In this document: positions 2,766-16,677 of the stretch, one piece after another
Layout: every line of letters begins with the position of its first letter
Numbering within the stretch: the stretch's first letter is position 1
Assembly: GCA_001799195.1 (NCBI GenBank)
Contig: MGSU01000339.1
Span: forward strand, 1 to 24,348
Length of the DNA: 24,348 bases
From: Deltaproteobacteria bacterium RIFOXYA12_FULL_61_11
GTDB lineage: Bacteria; Bdellovibrionota_F; JAHFAK01; YA12-FULL-61-11
Direction of reading: 5' to 3'
Position numbers and translations under genes: made by a program
Notes under the pieces: model-generated
What the model was told of the DNA's origin: nothing
What the model saw: only the letters and a program-made list of their open reading frames with translations
The model's database searches: none

Positions 2766-3284
2766 TTATTCGAGTTCGTTGGCCTTGTAGAGCCCACCGC
2801 CGCCGATGATGTTGCCGGAGGCATCGACGGCCCCGGTGCGCAGAAAGGTGGAGTAGTTGGCATCTCCGTCCTGGTCACCGATCGCGTTGGCGGTGAAAGA
2901 CGAGGCCGTGCCCGTACCTCCCGCGCTCACCCGGTACATGTAGAGCACCGGCCCGTCGACCGCGAACGAGATCCTCTTCCAGTCATCGCCGTCAAAGGAC
3001 GCTGCCGTGCCGCCCTTGGTCCCAGTGGGAGGAATGGTGTCCGGCGACGGTCCCGCATTGGTGAAGGCCCGGGTCACGTACGTACCGCCGAGCGTGGCCC
3101 GTTCGTCCTGGTAATAGGCGACTTCGCCATCGTAGATCTTGCGGATGTTGTTCTCGGCTTCGATGGTCTTGGACTTTTGCACATAGCGCAAGAAGGCAGG
3201 GATGGCCACCGCAGCTAAGATACCGATAATCGCGACCACAATCATCAATTCGATCAGCGTGAACCCATGATGCCGTCTTGTCAT
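2766..3284 (-). CDS. pilA: Type IV pilin (pilin 1 of 4)
   Basis: This is a type IVa prepilin of 172 residues. The leader MTRRHHG is followed by the prepilin peptidase (PilD) site G/F and the N-methylation/assembly helix [20 protein letters not shown], with the conserved Glu at mature position 5. The C-terminal head carries a GDQDGD loop, possibly a calcium site, and the protein ends in NELE. It has no cysteine. The chosen ATG at 3284 has a strong AGGAGGG 9 bases upstream; an in-frame GTG 33 bases further upstream is less likely. The mature form differs from pilin 2 at only 5 of 165 positions. The product should be secreted by the Pil machinery and polymerised into surface fibres. No other pil assembly gene is in the window. 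Confidence 0.95.
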
Positions 3285-3425
3285 GGCAATAACCCTCCTG
3301 ACAGCGTGGTAGTGCAATCAATCCCACCCCTCGAGAAGGCGGGCGGCGGGTACATTGCAAAAAACATTCCTGAGACCCCTGCAAGCCTTTCTGCGAGTTG
3401 GACCTCCCCCCAGCAAGGAGTGCCG

Positions 3426-3451
3426 TTTTTCGGCAGTCAGTAGCCGAAAAA
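3426..3451. repeat. Inverted repeat with 9-bp arms between pilins 1 and 2
   Basis: TTTTTCGGC (3426-3434) and GCCGAAAAA (3443-3451) flank an 8-base loop. Read on either strand the T-run comes first and the A-run last, which is the wrong order for an intrinsic terminator. GCCG at 3422-3425 can also pair with CGGC at 3431-3434, so two exclusive hairpins are possible in the pilin 1 leader RNA. It could be a protein-binding site or a leader switch; the function is unknown. Confidence 0.45.
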
Positions 3452-3528
3452 ATGTCATCACTCAACTTGAGGAAGGACGGCCCCTGCAGTCAGGGAACCG
3501 TGGAATCTCTTCAGGATACGGTGGGACG

Positions 3529-3557
3529 CGGTTCGGACCCGTCAGGAGACCGAACCG
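3529..3557 (-). other. Hairpin just after the pilin 2 stop codon
   Basis: On the minus strand CGGTTCGG (3557-3550) pairs with CCGAACCG (3536-3529) around a 13-base loop, starting 3 bases after the pilin 2 TAA. No U-tract follows, so it is a candidate mRNA 3' end stabiliser, processing stop or weak attenuator rather than a classic terminator. Confidence 0.45.
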
Positions 3558-3560
3558 GTG

Positions 3561-4073
3561 TTATTCGAGTTCGTTGGCCTTGTAGAGCCCACCGCCGCCG
3601 ATGATGTTGCCGGAGGCATCGACCGCACCGGTGCGCAGGAAGGTGGAGTAGTTGGAGTCGCCGTCTTGGTTGCCGATCGCGTTCGCGGTGAAGGACGAGG
3701 TCGTGCCCGTGCCGCCCGCGCTCACCCGGTACATGTAGAGCACCGGCCCGTCGACCGCGAACGAGATCCTCTTCCAGTCATCGCCGTCGAAGGACGCGGC
3801 CGTGCCGCCTTTGGTCCCGCTGGGAGGAATGGTGGCCGGTGACGGTCCCGCATTGGTGAAGGCCCGGGTCACGTACGTGCCGCCGAGCGTGGCCCGTTCG
3901 TCCTGGTAATAGGCGACTTCGCCATCGTAGATTTTGCGGATGTTGTTCTCGGCTTCGATGGTCTTGGACTTCTGCACATAGCGCAAGAAAGCAGGTATGG
4001 CCACGGCGGCCAGGATGCCGATGATCGCGACCACGATCATCAATTCGATCAAGGTGAATCCATGTTTCTTCAC
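3561..4073 (-). CDS. pilA: Type IV pilin (pilin 2 of 4)
   Basis: This 170-residue type IVa prepilin begins with GTG (leader MKKHG, cleavage G/F) behind a GGGGGG-type ribosome site about 4 bases upstream. The mature protein has 165 residues, the same length as pilins 1 and 3, with Glu5, the long hydrophobic helix, a GNQDGD loop and the NELE terminus. Its DNA matches pilin 1 over long stretches inside the coding region, including the last 60 or so bases up to the stop, but the flanking DNA is unrelated. That pattern fits duplication followed by gene conversion or strong purifying selection. It lies between pilins 1 and 3 with spacers of about 276 and 106 bases, so it may be co-transcribed with pilin 3. 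Confidence 0.95.
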
Positions 4074-4123
4074 AGCGCCCCCCTACAGAGCAAAGAATGG
4101 TCACAGGGTCAACCTATACCATC

Positions 4124-4168
4124 GTTCCGAGGTCCCACGGCCTCACCCGGACCCTAGGACCTCGGAAC
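4124..4168 (-). other. Long hairpin just after the pilin 3 stop codon
   Basis: GTTCCGAGGTCC (4124-4135) and GGACCTCGGAAC (4157-4168) are perfect 12-bp inverted arms around a 21-base loop. The element begins about 11 bases after the pilin 3 stop, in the short gap before pilin 2. No U-tract follows on the minus strand. The position parallels the hairpin after pilin 2, which suggests a shared role in setting pilin mRNA stability or relative output. Confidence 0.55.
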
Positions 4169-4179
4169 AACAGCAAATA

Positions 4180-4701
4180 TTACTCCAATTCGTTGACCTT
4201 ATACAGGCCGCCGCCGCCCTGGATGTTCCCGGAGGCGTCGATGCTGCCCGTGCGCAGGAAGGTCGAGTAGGTGCCGTCGCCGTCCTGATCGCCGATCGCA
4301 TTCGCGGTAAAGGACGAGGTCGTTCCCGTGCCGCCCGCGGTCACCCGGTACATGTACAACACCGGACCATCGACCGAGAAGGAGATCCGCTTCCACTCAT
4401 CACCTTCGAAGGAAGCCGCGGTGCCGCCCTTGGTCCCCGTAGGAGGCACGGTCGCAGGAGAAGGACCGGCATTGGTGAAGGCCCTGGTCGTGTAGGTCCC
4501 GCCGATGGTGGCCTTCTCGTCTTGGTAATAGGCGACTTCGCCGTCGTAGATCTTGCGGATGTTGTTCTCCGCCTCGATCGTCTTGGACTTTTGCACGTAC
4601 CGCAAGAAAGCAGGAATGGCCACCGCGGCCAGGATGCCGATGATCGCGACGACGATCATGAGCTCGATCAGGGTGAAACCTTTCATATCTCTCTTAAGCA
4701 T
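4180..4701 (-). CDS. pilA: Type IV pilin (pilin 3 of 4)
   Basis: This is a type IVa prepilin of about 173 residues: leader MLKRDMKG, cleavage G/F, Glu5, standard hydrophobic helix, 165-residue mature form, GDQDGDG loop and NELE terminus. It differs from pilin 2 at roughly 16 positions, mostly conservative, so it is the oldest branch of the three close copies. The ATG at 4701 follows GGAGG by 4 bases. A second in-frame ATG at 4686 would shorten the leader to MKG but lacks a good ribosome site. It is the pilin directly downstream of a sigma-54-like promoter at 4828-4842, which suggests that it is the main transcribed copy and may lead a 3-2-1 transcript. Confidence 0.95.
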
Positions 4702-4827
4702 GGGACCTCCAAACAACAGATCGTGTGAAACCTTCGAACGCCTTCGTCGAAAGGGAACTTCGGCGGAGGCCGCAGCGGTAAAGCATTTTTCATGCCGCGC
4801 CGATACTTCAATTTATATCAATATATT

Positions 4828-4842
4828 GCCAAACAATTGCCA
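4828..4842 (-). promoter_or_regulatory. Candidate sigma-54 (-24/-12) promoter for pilin 3
   Basis: Read on the minus strand, the site is TGGCAATTGTTTGGC followed by A. It has the GG-N10-GC spacing and matches the TGGCACG-N4-TTGCW consensus at 9 of 12 defined positions. It sits in an AT-rich patch about 127 bases before the pilin 3 ATG, leaving a leader of about 115 bases. Pilin genes in several proteobacteria use RpoN with the PilS/PilR pair (established knowledge). The 8-mer TTGGCAAT is directly repeated here, which produces both half-sites. Confidence 0.5.
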
Positions 4843-4884
4843 ATACGAGTGCCTTTTTTTGTCATTCCAAGACACCCATTTCCG

Positions 4885-5520
4885 TCATTCCAGTTCGCGA
4901 TCTCGGTAGATCGCCGACATGTCCATGGTGGAGAAGAAGATCGACCACAGGGTGGTGTACGCCGAAGCGGCATCCCCATCGAGATCCCCGCGCGCCTGGA
5001 GGGCATACCAGCTCACCCCGGCTCCGGAATACAGGTTGCTCGAGTTGACGAAGGTCCGGTCGAAGAGGTTCCCCTGGGTATAGGTCGCGAAACTATCGGG
5101 GTTTTTGTTTACCCCGTTTAAAACCAAGGAGGTATTGTAGGTTCCGGTCCCGGCCGCGGCTTGGTACTGAAAATAGGTCTGCGTGGAGATGAAAGTCGCT
5201 ATCCCGTCGACTCCCCAGAACGCTCGGTAATTAGAGGTCGACCCGGCGCAATTGGCGTCGTCCGAGGTCTGCCGGACGAAGTTCTTCGGTGCCCCGATGG
5301 GATCACTACAGGGGTTCGCAGGGAGGGGCAGGTAGCTCCCCTCCTCGCTGTAGTACGCCTCTTCGCCTGAGCGGATCTTGGCGAAGGCCATCGGCACCTC
5401 GGCGGTCCGGGACCGCTTCACGTACTTCAAATAGGCGGGAACAGCCACCGCGGCCAAAATGCCGATAATGGCGACCACGATCATCAATTCGATCAAGGTG
5501 AAGCCAACGGATCGTTTCAT
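4885..5520 (-). CDS. Type IV pilin-like protein (pilin 4 of 4, divergent)
   Basis: This 211-residue prepilin has leader MKRSVG, cleavage G/F, Glu5 and a canonical N-terminal helix ([21 protein letters not shown]). The head is longer than in pilins 1-3 and unrelated over most of its length. It has two cysteines (C71, C91) that may form a disulfide, plus a GDLDGD loop (178-183) and a terminal RELE matching the NELE of the others. The ATG follows AGGGGGG closely. It is the first pilin after lnt, with a 114-base gap. It may be a second major pilin or a minor pilin; length and full head domain favour a PilA-like role. A direct repeat (GTCATTCCA on the plus strand at 4861-4869 and 4884-4892) covers its stop codon. 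Confidence 0.93.
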
Positions 5521-10074: not shown

Positions 10075-10488
10075 TCAGCCCTTTTCCGGCTTCGCCACCA
10101 GCTCCACCAGCACCGACCCGGTCGAAGCCGGGTGCAGGAACGCGATGGCACTGCCGTGCGCGCCGGACCTGGGCGTACGGTCGATGAGCCGGACTCCTTG
10201 ATCGGCCAACGCCCCAAGGGTTTTTTGGAGGTCTCCCTCGACCCGCAAGGCCAGATGGTGCAAGCCCTGGCCTCGCTTCTCCAGGAACTTGGCCACCGGG
10301 GAATCTTCGGCCGTCGGTTCGAGCAACTCGAGCCTGGTGGTTCCGAGGCCGAGCACGGCCACCCTCACCTGCTGTTCTGGCACCTCTTCAATGCCGAGGA
10401 GCTCTAAACCCAAGATCTTCTCGTACAAAGGCAACGCCTCCTCCAGCGAGGCCACGGCCACGCCGAGGTGATCGAGCGAGCTGATCAT
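10075..10488 (-). CDS. mce: Methylmalonyl-CoA epimerase
   Basis: The enzyme interconverts (2S)- and (2R)-methylmalonyl-CoA. It is a VOC/glyoxalase-fold protein of 137 residues. The likely metal ligands are H7 (DHLGVAV), Q40 (EQQVRVA), H77 (GLHHLAL) and E129 (VLVELV). The internal duplicate of the fold can be seen, with two beta-alpha-beta-beta-beta halves at about 3-57 and 75-132. The start is taken as the ATG at 10488, which has GGAGG 7 bases upstream and overlaps the meaB stop as ATGA; a GTG at 10494 lies too close to that site. It is the last gene of the mutase operon. Confidence 0.92.
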   Translation of the reverse strand: MISSLDHLGVAVASLEEALPLYEKILGLELLGIEEVPEQQVRVAVLGLGTTRLELLEPTAEDSPVAKFLEKRGQGLHHLALRVEGDLQKTLGALADQGVRLIDRTPRSGAHGSAIAFLHPASTGSVLVELVAKPEKG

Positions 10489-11369
10489 CGACACTCCTCC
10501 TCAATAATCCTGTCCACTGCTTCCAACAAACGGACGAGCAAGGCAGGCGGGACCGGTCCCCGACCCAGTTTGTCGGCAATCGTCCTGCGCACCTCGTCGC
10601 CAACCCTCCTGGCCACCTCGAGGCCTTGAGGTTTTCGGCCGGGGGCTCTCGCCAGAGCTTCCAGGATCGCTTCGTACAAGGCCTCTACCCCGCGACCCTC
10701 TTGTGCGACGACCTCCAGACACGGGCCCAACCCGAGGGTGGTGAGATGCCCCCGCAAACGATCGGCGCCCGGCAGATCGACCTTGTTCAGCACCAGGAGC
10801 TCGGCTACCTGGACGACTCCGCCCTTGAGCAACTGGACATCGTCCCCTTGCTCCGGTGCCAGGACCAGGAGCAGCAGATCGACCAGTTCTGCCACCGCCA
10901 CATCGGCCTGACCAATACCCACGGTCTCGACCAGGATCAGCTCGCGAGGAGCGGCGCTGACGACCTGGAGGATGCGAGGCAGGGCATCGCTGATGCCGCC
11001 TCCGGCTCCTCTGCTGGCCAGACTGCGGAAGAACACGGCTTCGGCCAGGAACTCGCGACCGAGCCTGAGCCGGTCCCCGAGAAAGGCCCCGCCGCTGAGC
11101 GGACTGGACGGATCAATGGCCAACACCGCGACCCGGTGACCTCTCGCCACGGCGACCTCGAGCAACGCAGCGACCAAGGTCGACTTGCCGACTCCCGGCG
11201 GTCCGGTCACCCCGACCGTCCTGCGACTCGAGCCGGAAGCCTCGCCGAGGTAGCGGAGCAAGTCCTCGTGGCCGGGGCCTCGGTCTTCGGCAAGGGTGAT
11301 GGCCTGGGCCAGGGCCGAGACCTCTCCTGCTACGACCCGCTGAGCCAACCTTCGCGGATCGGCCTTCAT
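10485..11369 (-). CDS. meaB: MeaB/ArgK-type G3E GTPase (methylmalonyl-CoA mutase chaperone)
   Basis: MeaB guards and reloads adenosylcobalamin in methylmalonyl-CoA mutase at the cost of GTP. The 294 residues have Walker [10 protein letters not shown] (56-64), the [15 protein letters not shown] motif (86-100), switch-region ETVGIGQAD (148-156) and the guanine-specific NKVD (195-198). Its ATG overlaps the mcmA2 stop (ATGA) and its stop overlaps the epimerase ATG (ATGA), which ties its output to the mutase. It was once named ArgK from lysine-arginine-ornithine transport; the context here settles the mutase role. Confidence 0.95.
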
Positions 11370-11773
11370 GCGCCCAGCTTCTCCCTGATGAACGCCCCGA
11401 TGGCCACCGCCGAGCTGCCCGGGGTGAAGATCTCGGCAAAGCCCTGGCCGCGGAGTTTCTCCGCGTCTGTAGCAGGGATGATACCCCCACCGAGGACCAT
11501 ACGGTCGCCAAGTCCCAGGTTACGGAGCTCGGTCAGTACGGCCGGGAAGGTCTGTTCGTGGGCTCCCGACAGACTGGACAATCCAATAACGTCGACGTCC
11601 TCCTGCAAGGCCATGGCCGCGACCTGGGCCGCCGTGCGCCGTAAGCCGCTGTAGATTACTTCGAAGCCCTGTTCCATCAAGGCCCTGGCCAAGAATTTCG
11701 CCCCGCGGTCGTGCCCGTCGAGGCCCACCTTGGCAATCAACACCCGTATGGGTCGTCCTTTCCGTGCATTCAT
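11366..11773 (-). CDS. mcmA2: Methylmalonyl-CoA mutase, cobalamin-binding small subunit
   Basis: This 135-residue protein is a stand-alone B12-binding domain (flavodoxin-like Rossmann fold). The base-off/His-on motif DxHxxG appears as D19-G20-H21-D22-R23-G24. The following LSSLSG (65-70) and VLGGGIIP (93-100) contact the nucleotide tail. The start ATG at 11773 lies 11 bases after the large subunit stop with a GAGGGGG overlapping that stop. In many bacteria this domain is fused to the C-terminus of the mutase; here it is a separate gene, the layout common in archaea and some bacteria. Confidence 0.95.
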
Positions 11774-11784
11774 CGCTCGCCCCC

Positions 11785-13425
11785 TCAGATAACCACGTGT
11801 TCGCGGTGCTCGCCGAAGACGGTGCGCAGCACCCCACAGATCTCGCCGATGCTTGCCGAGGCTTTGGCAGCCTCGACGAACAAGGGCACGAGATTGGTAT
11901 CCCCCTGCGCAGCCTCTCGAATGGCGTCGAGAGCCCGGTCGACGGCCGCACGGTCGCGCTGGGCTTTGAATTTCTTGAGACCTTCGAGCTGCCGCTGCTC
12001 GACTTCCGGGGGAATACGGGTCAATTCGGGTTCCGGCTCGGGACCGCCCTGCAGGGTGTTGACTCCGACGACCAAGCGCTCGCCGGCCTCGATCTCCTGC
12101 TGGTAGCGATACGCGGCGTGCTGGATCTCCTGTTGGATGAAGCCGCTCTCGATGGCGGCAACCACCCCTCCGAGTTCGTCGATGCGCCGGAGGTACACCT
12201 CGGCCTCGGCCTCGATAGCGTCCGTGAGCTGCTCGACCATGAAGGAACCGGCCAAGGGATCCACGCTGTTGGTCACCCCGGACTCGTGAGCGATGAGCTG
12301 TTGCGTGCGCAACGCCAGGAGAGCCGAGGCCTCGGTGGGCAAGCCGACGGCCTCGTCCCGGGAATTGGTGTGGAGACTCTGGGTCCCGCCGAGAACCGCT
12401 GCCAGGGCCTGGAGAGTCACGCGAACCACGTTGTTCTCCGGCTGTTGCGCGGTCAGGGTCGATCCGCCCGTTTGGGTGTGGAAACGCAGCATCGCGGAAC
12501 GCGGGTCCTTCGCCCCGAAGCGCTCGACCATGATCTTGGCCCACAAACGCCTCGCCGCGCGGAACTTGGCCACTTCCTCCAGGAGGTCATTGTGGGCGTT
12601 GAAGAAGAAGCTCAAGCGGGGGGCGAAGGCATCGACCTCGAGCCCGACCCGGAGCGCTTCTTCCACATAGGTGATGCCATTGGCCAGGGTGAAGGCGACC
12701 TCCTGGACCGCGGTGGATCCGGCCTCGCGGATGTGATAGCCCGAGATGCTGATGGTGTTCCAGCGCGGCACCCGCTCGCTGCAGAAGCGAAACAGGTCGG
12801 TGATCAACCGGAGCGAGGGGCGCGGCGGGAAAATGTATGTCCCGCGCGCCACGTACTCCTTGAGGATGTCGTTCTGCACCGTGCCGCCGAGTTTGTTCCA
12901 CGGCACTCCGGCGCGTTCGGCCGCCGCCAGGTAAAATGCGAGAACCACGGCCGCGGGAGCGTTGATGGTCATGGAGGTCGTTACCTCGCCGAGGGGTATT
13001 CCGGCGAAGAGGGCCTCGAGGTCAGCCAGGGTGTCGATAGCCACTCCGACTTTGCCGACTTCCCCGACAGCGAGGGGATCGTCGGAATCGTAACCGAGCT
13101 GGGTCGGGAGATCGAAGGCCACCGAGAGCCCGGTCTGGCCCTGGGAGAGGAGGTAACGGTACCGCCGGTTGGTTTCCTCGGCCGTGGAGAACCCGGCATA
13201 CTGGCGCATGGTCCAGAACCGTCCGCGGTACATGGTCGGCTGGACCCCTCGGGTATAGGGATAGGCTCCGGGATGACCGAGTGGCCCAGTACCCTGCCGG
13301 GTATACACCCGTTCGATGGGCCGTCCGGAAGCATTGGTGAAACGCTCCAGTCGCTCGGGATTGCGATGGAGGAAAGGTTGGAGTACGGTTTCGTCCCAGG
13401 ATGCAAACGTATCGTCGGACGTCAT
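11785..13425 (-). CDS. mcmA1: Methylmalonyl-CoA mutase, large (catalytic) subunit
   Basis: This is the TIM-barrel subunit of adenosylcobalamin-dependent methylmalonyl-CoA mutase (546 residues), which interconverts (R)-methylmalonyl-CoA and succinyl-CoA. [20 protein letters not shown] (63-82) is the signature. Residues Y66 and R194, which hold the substrate carboxylate, and H231 (SISGYH) are present; isobutyryl-CoA mutases have Phe and Gln at the first two sites. The ATG at 13425 has GAGG 6 bases upstream; a longer 581-residue reading starts with poorly conserved sequence. It leads the operon mcmA1-mcmA2-meaB-mce. No propionyl-CoA carboxylase is in the window, so the direction of flux (propionate use or propionyl-CoA formation) stays open. 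No B12-box riboswitch is visible upstream. Confidence 0.95.
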
Positions 13426-13659
13426 ATGGGACCTCTTCGTGAGAACCTCCTGATCGCATAGCACGAACCCTTGTCCTGGCCAATGGAATTCGACAGCCGA
13501 GAACCGTCCGAGTCCAACGCTACGTGTCATTAGTTTCTCATTGTAATGTTGGCGATTTGTTTATTTTTATTGCCTTTTTCTGCCCAGAGGTTTACATTCC
13601 CTCACGCTAAAAACCGACCGGGTCGTGCTCGCTCCGAGTGCCACTCCGGCTGGAGGACC
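13426..13659. promoter_or_regulatory. Divergent control region between mutase and mevalonate operons
   Basis: This 234-base gap must hold the promoters of both operons. Its centre (about 13530-13600) is sharply AT-rich, containing runs such as TTTGTTTATTTTTATTG, unlike the surrounding sequence. TACAAT on the minus strand (13545-13540) is a possible -10 box for mcmA1, and TTGTAA (13541-13546) a weak -35 box for the plus strand. Neither has a convincing partner, so I give no exact promoter. Confidence 0.4.
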
Positions 13660-14940
13660 ATGAACGCCGAGCATCCCTACTCGAAATTCTACCTGCGCAC
13701 CCTCCGCGAGCGGCAGAGCATCGTCGCCGAGACGACCGACCTGACCCCGGAGGAGCGCCAACTGCTCCTGAACGGCGGGGGGCTCCAACTCGACCTAGCC
13801 GACCTGATGTCCGAGAACGTGATCGGCACTTTCGGCCTGCCCTTCGCCCTGGCTGTCAACTTCGTCATCGACGGCACGCCCCGCGTCCTTCCCTTCGTCA
13901 CCGAGGAGGCCTCGGTCGTGGCCGCCGCTTCCAAGGCCGCCAAGCTCTCCGAGGGCTTCACCACGGATGTGGACGAACCGATCATGATCGGACAACTCCA
14001 GATCGTGAAGTGCCGCGATCCGGAACAAAGTCTGCAGAGCCTCCTGGACAACAAAGTCGAACTGCTGCGGGAGTTGCTCAACTCGGACTTGCCCCTCAAG
14101 GCCTTCGGCGGTGGCCCGCGCGATCTGCACGGAGAGGTCCTCGAGACCGAGCGGGGCCGCATGATCGTGCTGCACCTGCTCGTCGACGTCCGCGACGCCA
14201 TGGGCGCCAACGCCATCAATACGATCCTCGAGACCTTCGCCCCCCAGGTCCAGAAAATCATCGACGGCGAGGTTCGACTGCGCATTCTCAGCAACCTGAG
14301 CACCTATCGCATTGCCAGGGCAAAGACCGTCTGGCGGCGCGAAACCCTCGGCGCCGAGACTATCGATGGCGTGCTCGACGCCTATGCCTTCGCCCAGGCC
14401 TCGCCCTATCGCGCGGTGACCCACAACAAGGGTGTGATGAACGGCATCGATGCCGTCGCCCTGGCCACGGGCAACGATTTCCGCGCCCTCGAGGCCTGTG
14501 CCCACGCCTATGCCTGCCTGGTCAACGACGGGAAATACCGCAGCCTGACCGAGTTCTCTACCGATGACCAGGGCGACCTCTGCGGCCGCATCGAGGTTCC
14601 CCTCGGAGTCGGTACGGTCGGCGGCTCGACCCGCATCAACCCCATGGCCAGGTTGGCCCTCAAGATCCTCGGAGTACGATCCTCGCGCGAACTTGCCGGC
14701 ATCATGGCCTCGGCAGGGCTCGCCCAGAACTTCGCCGCCCTGCTCAGCCTCGCCACCGAGGGTATCCAGCGCGGCCACATGCGCCTGCACAGCAAGAGCA
14801 TCGCGCTCATGGCCGGAGCCATCGGCGAGGAGATCGAAAAAATCTCCCTGCGCATGATCCAAGAAGATAAGATCAGCCTGCACAATGCCGAGAACTTTCT
14901 CGCCTTGCTGAGGAGGATGAGCGGTGAACCGGGCGAATAA
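13660..14940 (+). CDS. mvaA: Hydroxymethylglutaryl-CoA reductase, class II
   Basis: HMGR reduces HMG-CoA to mevalonate, the committed step of the mevalonate pathway, in the cytosol. The 426 residues suit a soluble bacterial class II enzyme without membrane helices. ENVIGTFGLPFALAVNF (52-68) is the class II N-terminal signature. The catalytic residues can be placed as E83 (TEEAS), K257 (HNKGVMNG), D273 (ATGND) and H377 (GHMRLH), matching E83/K267/D283/H381 of the Pseudomonas mevalonii enzyme. DAMGANAINTI (179-189) is the cofactor-side motif. The ATG at 13660 has GGAGG directly before it; an upstream in-frame start would add 38 unconserved residues. The stop overlaps the next gene by 17 bases. 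Synthesis is inferred from the following kinases; a catabolic role, as in P. mevalonii, would not need them. Confidence 0.96.
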   Translation: MNAEHPYSKFYLRTLRERQSIVAETTDLTPEERQLLLNGGGLQLDLADLMSENVIGTFGLPFALAVNFVIDGTPRVLPFVTEEASVVAAASKAAKLSEGFTTDVDEPIMIGQLQIVKCRDPEQSLQSLLDNKVELLRELLNSDLPLKAFGGGPRDLHGEVLETERGRMIVLHLLVDVRDAMGANAINTILETFAPQVQKIIDGEVRLRILSNLSTYRIARAKTVWRRETLGAETIDGVLDAYAFAQASPYRAVTHNKGVMNGIDAVALATGNDFRALEACAHAYACLVNDGKYRSLTEFSTDDQGDLCGRIEVPLGVGTVGGSTRINPMARLALKILGVRSSRELAGIMASAGLAQNFAALLSLATEGIQRGHMRLHSKSIALMAGAIGEEIEKISLRMIQEDKISLHNAENFLALLRRMSGEPGE

Positions 14941-15865
14941 CCGCGGCTTCGGAAAAACCATTCTCTGCGGCGAGCACTTCGTGGTCCACGGTCTGCCCGC
15001 CATCGTCTCGGCCCTGTCCACCAGTACCTCGGCCGTCCTCTGCGAGAGTAACCTGCCGGGGCTCCAGCTCCTCGACGAGCGGCCGGCCACTCCCGGGTAC
15101 AAGGCCGAGAAACGTGCCCAGCAGGAGGCGAGTCTGCGGTTGATGGCCGAGGCTCTGGGGCTCAACCTCTCGGCGCGAGGCCTCGTCGTCCGCCTCGGAG
15201 GTGACCTCGTCGCGGCCAGCGGAGTGGGCGCCTCGGCGGCGAGCTGCACCGCCTTCGCCCGCGCCGCCAGCTCGTTCTTCGGCCTCGACCTCGACGATGC
15301 CCGGATCAATGCCGTGGCCTTCGAGGGCGAAAAAGCCTTCCACGGCACCCCTTCGGGCATCGACAACACCGCTGCGACTTACGGCGGCCTGCTCACGTTC
15401 CGGAAGGACCTCTCCGGCGGTGCGCCGAGCTTCACCCCCCTCGCCACCGGAACCCCCTTACCCATCGTCCTGGCCGACACCGCGCTCACGGCCGACACCA
15501 GCGCCGTGGTTGGCGAGGTCCGCGCGTTCCTGCGAGCGAACCCTGATCGCGGCCGCGAGCTGTTCACGGCCTATGACGCCCTCTACTCGGAGATGGTTCA
15601 GGCGCTCGAAGTCGGGGAACTCCGTCAAATCGGGACCTTGATGAATCGCAACCAGGACCTGCTCGCCGAGCTGGGCGTCTCCTGCCCGGAAATCGAGGAG
15701 CTTATCGCCATGGCCCGTTCGAACGGCGCACTGGGAGCAAAGCTGACCGGCACCGGCCGCGGAGGGCTAGTCCTCTGCCTCGCCGCAGACGAGCGTTCGG
15801 CAGACACGCTCGCAGAATTACTCGCCACCTCGGGGCGGCGCATCTTCCGCGCGACCCTCGGTTGA
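14924..15865 (+). CDS. mvk: Mevalonate kinase
   Basis: This GHMP-superfamily kinase makes mevalonate 5-phosphate from mevalonate and ATP. The 313 residues resemble the short archaeal-type enzymes. Motif 1 is GKTILCGEHFVVHGLPAI (10-27), with K11 near the active site. Motif 2, the ATP loop, reads SGVGASAASC (99-108). SGID (144-147) supplies the catalytic Asp D147. Motif 3 reads KLTGTGRGG (273-281), where Arg replaces one of the usual glycines. The GTG start at 14924 has AGGAGG 7 bases upstream and overlaps the HMGR end by 17 bases, which fits translational coupling. Phosphomevalonate kinase or a decarboxylase are the other GHMP options, but motif 1 is of the mevalonate kinase type. Confidence 0.93.
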   Translation: MNRANNRGFGKTILCGEHFVVHGLPAIVSALSTSTSAVLCESNLPGLQLLDERPATPGYKAEKRAQQEASLRLMAEALGLNLSARGLVVRLGGDLVAASGVGASAASCTAFARAASSFFGLDLDDARINAVAFEGEKAFHGTPSGIDNTAATYGGLLTFRKDLSGGAPSFTPLATGTPLPIVLADTALTADTSAVVGEVRAFLRANPDRGRELFTAYDALYSEMVQALEVGELRQIGTLMNRNQDLLAELGVSCPEIEELIAMARSNGALGAKLTGTGRGGLVLCLAADERSADTLAELLATSGRRIFRATLG

Positions 15866-15879
15866 AGTCCAGGATTCCC

Positions 15880-16677
15880 ATGTCCATCCCTTTGATCGTC
15901 TGCAAGCTCGGCGGCAGTGTTCTGACCAGGAAGCGCGACGGCTTGCCCGAACTCGACCGCCCCGCGCTCCGGCGCATCGCAGGGGAACTCCGCCGCGCCC
16001 TCGCCGAACGCGCGCTCCGCCTGGTGCTGATCCATGGCGTCGGGGCTTACGGACATTCCCTGGTGGCCGAGACCGGTATCGCCGAGGGACTGCGGCTTCC
16101 CGAGGACCTCCCTGCGTTCCTCCGCGCCCACCTCTCCGTGGCAGGCCTCAATCTGCGCCTGGCGGAATTCTTCCACGAGGCGGGGTTGCCGATCCTTCCC
16201 CTCTCTCCGGCCGCTCTCTTCGAACTGGACCGCAAGGCCATCGTGACGGCACATCTGGCCCCCATCGAATTCGCGCTCGAGACCCTCGCCGCCATCCCCC
16301 TCCTCCACGGCGACATGGTCCCCGATCGCACCCTCGGCGGCGCAGTACTCTCCGGAGATCTGATCCTGGCCTATCTTTCCAGAGTGCTGCGCGCCGACCT
16401 CGCCCTCTTGGGCACGGACGTGGATGGGGTCTTCGACCGCGACCCCCGGCTGGATCCTACGGCTCGCCTGCTCGAGCGCCTTCCCGACCCACAAAACCCC
16501 GCGGCTGACGTGAGCGGTTCGACCGCCACCGACGTGACCGGGGGTATGGGCGGCAAACTCGCCGCCCTGGCCAGGGAACTCTCAGGGATACCGGCCTGGA
16601 TCTTCAACCTCGAGGCCCCGGACCGATTGTTCCGGCTCCTCACCGGGCGGAGTTGTCCCGGCACGCGCATCGGCTGA
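15880..16677 (+). CDS. ipk: Isopentenyl phosphate kinase
   Basis: This amino-acid-kinase-fold enzyme phosphorylates isopentenyl phosphate to isopentenyl diphosphate. Using the ATG at 15880 (AGGATT upstream) it has 265 residues; a TTG at 15862 overlapping the mvk stop is the alternative. The family pattern is clear: CKLGGSVLT (8-16) for ATP, then IHGVGAYGH (51-59), whose last His matches the catalytic His of archaeal IPKs (H60 in the Methanocaldococcus enzyme). HGDMVPD (143-149) and TDVDGVFDRDP (179-189) follow, with GGMGGKL near the C-terminus. Glutamate 5-kinase or fosfomycin kinase are relatives, but gene order behind HMGR and mevalonate kinase favours IPK. It implies the alternative mevalonate route. 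The needed phosphomevalonate decarboxylase and IPP isomerase are not in the window. Confidence 0.9.
   Translation: MSIPLIVCKLGGSVLTRKRDGLPELDRPALRRIAGELRRALAERALRLVLIHGVGAYGHSLVAETGIAEGLRLPEDLPAFLRAHLSVAGLNLRLAEFFHEAGLPILPLSPAALFELDRKAIVTAHLAPIEFALETLAAIPLLHGDMVPDRTLGGAVLSGDLILAYLSRVLRADLALLGTDVDGVFDRDPRLDPTARLLERLPDPQNPAADVSGSTATDVTGGMGGKLAALARELSGIPAWIFNLEAPDRLFRLLTGRSCPGTRIG

What the first reader, a model, noticed from the sequence alone, without database searches (positions are those of the whole stretch)
13660..16677. Bacterial HMGR-MVK-IPK operon implies the alternative mevalonate pathway
Three overlapping or tightly spaced genes encode class II HMG-CoA reductase, mevalonate kinase and isopentenyl phosphate kinase, all with readable catalytic residues. 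The classical bacterial pathway uses phosphomevalonate kinase and diphosphomevalonate decarboxylase; neither is here. IPK is mainly known from archaea, plants and a few bacteria such as Roseiflexus, where it pairs with a mevalonate-phosphate decarboxylase. This operon suggests that the whole route, or a salvage of isopentenyl phosphate, operates in another bacterial lineage.
Basis: partly seen in the sequence, partly recalled or inferred. Interest (0 to 1): 0.72.

Follow-up and report, generated by a model that had tools for sequence, protein, structure and literature searches.

The report
Alternative mevalonate pathway in unusual bacterium
This bacterium appears to make the building block of all isoprenoids (quinones, carotenoids and others) by a route so far known mainly from archaea and one bacterial phylum: genes for every step were found, scattered over several pieces of its genome, while key genes of the usual bacterial route were not found.

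Summary
Window 13660-16677 encodes class II HMG-CoA reductase, mevalonate kinase and isopentenyl phosphate kinase (IPK) as a bounded three-gene operon. IPK is a true IPK by curated HMM, tree, the diagnostic histidine and predicted fold. The same genome (4.64 Mb MAG, 87% complete) carries, on other contigs, an MDD-family decarboxylase closest to the solved Anaerolinea mevalonate-5-phosphate decarboxylase (45% identity; keeps the MPD-type His, lacks the MDD-type Lys), an archaeal-type HMG-CoA synthase/thiolase/OB-fold cluster, type 1 IPP isomerase and a prenyl synthase. No phosphomevalonate kinase, IspE, DXR, IspG or AcnX was found. The only held relative in its phylum has DXR and IspG instead. 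Best reading: a complete Roseiflexus/haloarchaea-type pathway (MVK, MPD, IPK) replaced MEP in a small, probably diderm bacterial phylum that is not Chloroflexota. The pathway is known; the host lineage and mosaic gene origin look new, as far as the papers held here show. Open: decarboxylase specificity is inferred only (Arg at the Lys/Asn position), and the MAG is incomplete. Side finding: another bacterial family carries the archaeal AcnX/UbiD/UbiX/IPK module.

The parts
13660..14940 (+). class II HMG-CoA reductase (426 aa)
   Evidence: TIGR00532 383 bits, PF00368 314 bits; best PDB 1qax HMGR E 2.5e-112; E83/K267/D283/H381 kept
14924..15865 (+). mevalonate kinase (313 aa), GHMP kinase; overlaps HMGR by 17 nt, GTG start behind gaggagg
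   Evidence: TIGR00549 209 bits over cut-off; best PDB 2hfs (putative mevalonate kinase, 257 bits) against 100 for the next
15880..16677 (+). isopentenyl phosphate kinase (265 aa from ATG 15880; alternative TTG start 15862)
   Evidence: NF040647 163.5 bits over cut-off 120; best PDB 3ll9 IPK; AlphaFold model pLDDT 91.9, first 33 Foldseek hits all IPK; catalytic His at nt 16054-16056
13531..13659 (.). 129-bp intergenic region, divergent from the methylmalonyl-CoA mutase gene; presumed promoter region of the operon (no sigma-70 consensus found)

Best explanation
The operon is the middle and last part of a complete alternative (haloarchaea/Roseiflexus-type) mevalonate pathway that is the only IPP route found in this bacterium. 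Acetyl-CoA goes to HMG-CoA by an archaeal-type thiolase/HMGS/OB-fold complex (contig C164), to mevalonate by class II HMGR (window), to mevalonate 5-phosphate by MVK (window), to isopentenyl phosphate by an ATP-dependent mevalonate-5-phosphate decarboxylase of the MDD family (contig C319), to IPP by IPK (window), then to DMAPP by type 1 IDI (C232) and to polyprenyl diphosphates (C116). Shown by sequence: the genes, their families, catalytic residues and the lack of hits to DXR, IspG, IspE/PMK and AcnX. Inferred: the substrate of the decarboxylase, flux, and the replacement of an ancestral MEP pathway.
For: IPK over curated cut-off, all invariant residues, split from glutamate kinases with 100% support, fold. 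Decarboxylase: best PDB is A. thermophila MPD, 254 bits against 152 for the best MDD; model pLDDT 92.5, first 17 Foldseek hits all A. thermophila MPD at 44-45% identity, next MDDs about 30%. The two residues mutated in entry 6n0z of that MPD (N20K H194M, to the Lys and Met seen in MDDs) are Arg and His here: the MDD Lys is absent and the MPD His kept (same diagnostic in PMC11052028). PF00288 finds only galactokinase, MVK and the decarboxylase, so no PMK or IspE. No DXR, IspG, AcnX, PF08540-type HMGS or IDI-2; archaeal HMGS 527 bits and IDI-1 153 bits present. Relative G001 has DXR and IspG and no IPK. Two other bacteria, UCB3 and family f84, have MVK, MPD-like and IPK genes side by side. All pathway contigs have the tetranucleotide make-up of the MAG.
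Against: MAG 87% complete, so one absent gene (PMK) has about a 13% chance of being merely missed. The decarboxylase scores over the MDD cut-off (TIGR01240 182 of 171) and far under the haloarchaeal MPD cut-off (NF040704 132 of 475), and is divergent (GSVSAARS for GSGSACRS, short insert); Arg could partly stand in for the MDD Lys, and the Ala and Thr of Roseiflexus MPD (Dellas Table 4) are Ser here. It lies on a contig of its own, not in the operon. No biochemistry.
Confidence: 0.85

Rival explanations
1. Classical mevalonate pathway with PMK lost from the assembly, plus an extra IPK that salvages isopentenyl phosphate or other alkyl phosphates.
For: MAG is 87% complete; the decarboxylase passes the MDD family cut-off; Chloroflexota enzymes with the same Lys-less, His-bearing motif are described as dual-function (PMC11052028).
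Against: IPK sits in the operon with HMGR and MVK; the closest decarboxylase is a solved MPD; MPD-type His kept, MDD-type Lys absent; no PMK among the PF00288 matches.
Confidence: 0.09
2. The pathway contigs are contamination from an archaeon or Chloroflexota binned into this MAG.
For: Several genes are of archaeal type and lie on separate small contigs; contamination 1.23%.
Against: Tetranucleotide distance and GC of C339, C319, C164, C232 and C116 lie within the MAG's own range; the window carries Lnt, FolE, pilins and MeaB/mutase genes and C232 a MutS2-like gene, all bacterial; without these contigs the MAG would have no IPP route found at all, as DXR and IspG were not found.
Confidence: 0.04
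3. Archaeal AcnX/UbiD-type route (via trans-anhydromevalonate phosphate) feeds the IPK.
For: IPK is shared with that route, and the nearest IPKs by identity (family f119, 40-42%) sit in AcnX/UbiD/UbiX/IPK clusters.
Against: No AcnX in this genome, and an MPD-like decarboxylase is present instead.
Confidence: 0.02

Closest known systems
Alternative mevalonate pathway of Roseiflexus castenholzii and other Chloroflexota (Dellas et al. 2013, PMC3857490)
   Same: MVK, MDD-family MPD and IPK, no PMK; bacterium
   Different: Host phylum is not Chloroflexota (only 2 species held for its phylum) and encodes Lnt and an O-antigen-ligase-like protein, hence probably diderm; HMGS is archaeal type; decarboxylase lacks the Ala and Thr of the Roseiflexus phosphate site
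Haloarchaea-type mevalonate pathway (Haloferax volcanii)
   Same: Order of steps MVK-MPD-IPK
   Different: Bacterial host; decarboxylase far from the haloarchaeal MPD model (NF040704 132 bits, cut-off 475)
Anaerolinea thermophila mevalonate-5-phosphate decarboxylase (PDB 6n0x, 6n0y, 6n0z)
   Same: 45% identity, same fold, His at the 194 position, no Lys at the 20 position
   Different: Arg instead of Asn at position 20; GSVSAARS loop and a short insert
Archaeal (Aeropyrum-type) modified mevalonate pathway; reported in the Chloroflexota bacterium Ca. Promineifilum breve (Kanno 2024, cited in PMC13001223; paper not held)
   Same: IPK as last step; archaeal-type HMGS
   Different: No AcnX; a single ATP-dependent decarboxylase instead of dehydratase plus UbiD-type decarboxylase

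Membership tests
Isopentenyl phosphate kinase | Over curated IPK score and apart from other amino acid kinases | tested here: met
   163.5 bits of 120; tree split from glutamate 5-kinases 100%
Isopentenyl phosphate kinase | Catalytic His plus 10 other invariant residues (K, GG, K, G, P, G, D-T-G) | tested here: met
   against PMC3857490 Table 2
Isopentenyl phosphate kinase | Phosphorylates isopentenyl phosphate | not testable with these tools
   needs assay
Mevalonate-5-phosphate decarboxylase (MPD) | Closest to proven MPD rather than MDD, MDD-family domains present | tested here: met
   PF22700 and PF18376; 254 against 152 bits; Foldseek ranks 1-17
Mevalonate-5-phosphate decarboxylase (MPD) | MDD Lys absent and MPD His present at the positions of N20/H194 of A. 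thermophila MPD | tested here: met
   Arg and His
Mevalonate-5-phosphate decarboxylase (MPD) | Roseiflexus/Chloroflexi-type residues (Leu77, Arg83, Ala201, Thr255) | tested here: inconclusive
   Positions read Arg, Phe, Ser, Ser by my alignment with S. epidermidis MDD; A. thermophila MPD lacks most of them too
Mevalonate-5-phosphate decarboxylase (MPD) | Uses mevalonate 5-phosphate | not testable with these tools
   needs assay
Alternative mevalonate pathway | HMGS, HMGR, MVK, MPD, IPK, IDI all encoded | tested here: met
Alternative mevalonate pathway | No phosphomevalonate kinase | tested here: met
   PF00288 search of own genome gives galactokinase, MVK and the decarboxylase only; limits: MAG 87% complete, animal-type PMK (PF04275) not searched
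MEP pathway | DXR, IspE, IspG present | tested here: not met
   no hit in own genome, DXR and IspG hit in relative G001; IspH not searched
Archaeal modified mevalonate pathway | AcnX phosphomevalonate dehydratase | tested here: not met
   no PF04412 hit

The most novel reading that the evidence does not exclude
A bacterial phylum outside Chloroflexota dropped the MEP pathway and put together a whole haloarchaea-type mevalonate pathway from separately acquired parts (archaeal HMGS complex and IPK, trypanosomatid/DPANN-like MVK, Anaerolinea-like MPD), with a decarboxylase of Arg/His signature that may accept both mono- and diphosphate and so stand at the switch point between the two mevalonate routes.
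Probability: 0.35. Interest if true: 0.65.

Novelty: new member of a known kind. Interest (0 to 1): 0.5.

Why it matters
A 2026 review (PMC13001223) still names only Chloroflexota as bacteria with an archaeal-type mevalonate route. A second, probably diderm phylum using it, next to a class-mate with MEP genes, makes pathway replacement in bacteria directly testable, and shows that automatic annotation (decarboxylase called diphosphomevalonate decarboxylase, PMK missing) hides such cases. IPK passed its cut-off in 8 of 386 sampled bacterial genomes, so more are waiting.

Tried and rejected
Searched for PF08540 HMGS and IDI-2 first: absent; archaeal HMGS and IDI-1 were then found. AcnX route tested and rejected for this genome. 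Contamination tested by composition and rejected. IPK and MPD trees do not place the window-genome proteins with any one donor (no starred clade for IPK; long branches meet for MPD), so donor claims are weak; only MVK groups with support (99/96) with Aenigmatarchaeota and archaeon RBG_16_50_20. Promoter/terminator scan gave nothing.

Full report
Observation. ORF calls and family searches confirm three genes on the + strand at 13660-16677: class II HMG-CoA reductase (13660-14940), mevalonate kinase (GTG 14924-15865) and isopentenyl phosphate kinase (TTG 15862 or ATG 15880 to 16677). HMGR and MVK overlap by 17 nt. Each start has a purine-rich ribosome-binding-like stretch before it (ggagg, gaggagg, agga). 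The gene upstream (methylmalonyl-CoA mutase) runs the other way and the gene downstream (sodium:solute symporter) is convergent, so the operon holds just these three genes. The first ORF can be opened at ATG 13546, but homology and the ribosome-binding site favour 13660.

Identity of the kinase. The last protein scores 163.5 bits with the curated IPK model (cut-off 120) and far below cut-off with glutamate 5-kinase, fosfomycin and UMP kinases. It keeps the IPK-specific His (residue 65 of the TTG form, nt 16054) and the other invariant residues listed by Dellas et al.. In a tree of 49 IPKs and three glutamate 5-kinase-like outgroups it lies with the IPKs (split 100%). Its AlphaFold model (pLDDT 91.9) matches solved IPKs in the first 33 ranks, before FomA and other kinases. 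One oddity is Val where most IPKs have Ala or Gly in HG(V/A)G; the Anaerolineae and one Patescibacteria IPK share it.

The missing step. A PF00288 search of the window's own genome (4.64 Mb, 342 contigs, 87% complete, 1.2% contamination) gave three GHMP proteins: a galactokinase (C10), the window's MVK, and a protein on contig C319. The last is a 338-aa MDD-family decarboxylase (PF22700, PF18376; TIGR01240 182 bits, just over its cut-off). Its best solved relative by far is the Anaerolinea thermophila mevalonate-5-phosphate decarboxylase (254 bits; next an MDD with 152). Its predicted structure (pLDDT 92.5) gives the same answer: ranks 1-17 are that enzyme at 44-45% identity, and MDDs follow at about 30%. 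Entry 6n0z is the N20K H194M mutant of that enzyme; at these positions the MDDs aligned here have Lys and Met. The window genome's enzyme has Arg and His. Zhu et al. (PMC11052028) use the same pair, conserved Lys of MDD against conserved His of MPD, to tell the two apart, and report dual function for Chloroflexota enzymes that lack the Lys and keep the His. The residues I take as catalytic from knowledge of the family (Asp in TLDAGPN, Arg in AARS, first Lys in KYWG) are kept. Substrate specificity is therefore likely mevalonate 5-phosphate, perhaps with some diphosphate activity; this is inference.

The rest of the pathway. Contig C164 carries an archaeal-type HMG-CoA synthase (527 bits of 353), an acetyl-CoA acetyltransferase-like thiolase and an OB-fold/zinc-ribbon protein in one cluster, which is the archaeal arrangement (own knowledge of the thiolase/HMGS/DUF35 complex). 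Contig C232 carries type 1 IPP isomerase and C116 a polyprenyl synthase. Not found: bacterial/eukaryotic-type HMGS (PF08540), IDI-2, DXR, IspG, AcnX, and through PF00288 no PMK and no IspE. IspD, IspF, IspH and animal-type PMK were not searched. The control genomes gave hits in each of these searches. Missing DXR, IspG and IspE together would be unlikely (roughly 0.2%) from 13% incompleteness alone, if losses were independent; a missing PMK alone would not be (13%).

Belonging. GC and tetranucleotide make-up of the window contig and of C319, C164, C232 and C116 fall inside the range of 20 other contigs of this MAG, and their neighbours are bacterial genes. The phylum is represented by just two held species, so it is not Chloroflexota. 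The other one, G001 (same class, other family), has DXR and IspG and no IPK. This fits replacement of MEP by the mevalonate route in the lineage of the window, or the reverse in G001; I prefer the former as MEP prevails in bacteria.

Relatives elsewhere. A scan of genome contigs with the IPK gave mainly archaea (many Micrarchaeota), two Patescibacteria, one Planctomycetota, two Anaerolineae and bacterium UCB3. UCB3 and bacterial family f84 have MVK, MPD-like and IPK genes next to each other. In 386 sampled bacteria, 8 pass the IPK cut-off. The MVK tree groups the window protein with Aenigmatarchaeota and archaeon RBG_16_50_20 (99/96), and the nearest solved MVK is 2hfs, a trypanosomatid enzyme by my own knowledge; the HMGR is 48% identical to that of RBG_16_50_20. 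IPK and MPD trees do not resolve a donor.

Side finding. The IPKs nearest to the window's by identity belong to bacterial family f119 (G133, G270) and close a five-gene cluster with UbiX, a UbiD-family decarboxylase and the two AcnX subunits, the archaeal modified mevalonate module. PMC10040528 calls that pathway unique to archaea; a Chloroflexota case is cited in PMC13001223. This was not pursued further.

Literature. Dellas et al. 2013 showed the MPD/IPK route in Roseiflexus; Zhu et al. 2024 name haloarchaea, some other archaea and Chloroflexota; a 2026 review names only Chloroflexota among bacteria. Kanno et al. 2024 (Ca. Promineifilum breve) is cited there but not held here. Within this library I found no report for another bacterial phylum; absence from an open-access subset is weak evidence.

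Verdict. It is a known pathway in a new place, with biochemical proof lacking.

Noticed in passing
L116:6439-10708 and L117:1517-6091 (bacterial genomes G133 and G270, family f119): Five-gene cluster UbiX, UbiD-family decarboxylase, AcnX large, AcnX small, IPK: the Aeropyrum-type archaeal modified mevalonate module in two bacterial genera. PMC10040528 calls this pathway unique to archaea; a Chloroflexota case was reported in 2024. Phylum of f119 and its HMGR/MVK not determined. Deserves its own study.
   Followed up: partly
L063:7040-10253 (bacterium UCB3) and L122:7078-10042 (bacterial family f84): MVK, MPD-like decarboxylase and IPK side by side: two more bacterial clusters of the alternative mevalonate pathway.
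   Followed up: partly
L126 (archaeon RBG_16_50_20): One locus holds HMGR, AcnX large and small, UbiD-like decarboxylase, MVK and an MPD-type protein, i.e. parts of two mevalonate routes together.
   Followed up: no
L025, L037, L038, L044, L046: Patescibacteria, Planctomycetota and Anaerolineae genomes with IPK but no MDD/MPD-family decarboxylase over cut-off; how they make isopentenyl phosphate was not followed.
   Followed up: no
window 2766-5520 (-): Four tandem type IV pilin-like genes with the N-terminal methylation motif, three of them nearly identical.
   Followed up: no
window 10075-13530 (-): Methylmalonyl-CoA epimerase, MeaB GTPase, B12-binding small subunit and mutase large subunit in one cluster, divergent from the mevalonate operon.
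   Followed up: no
window 15862-15865: MVK stop and possible TTG start of IPK overlap as TTGA; ATG 15880 has the better ribosome-binding site.
   Followed up: partly
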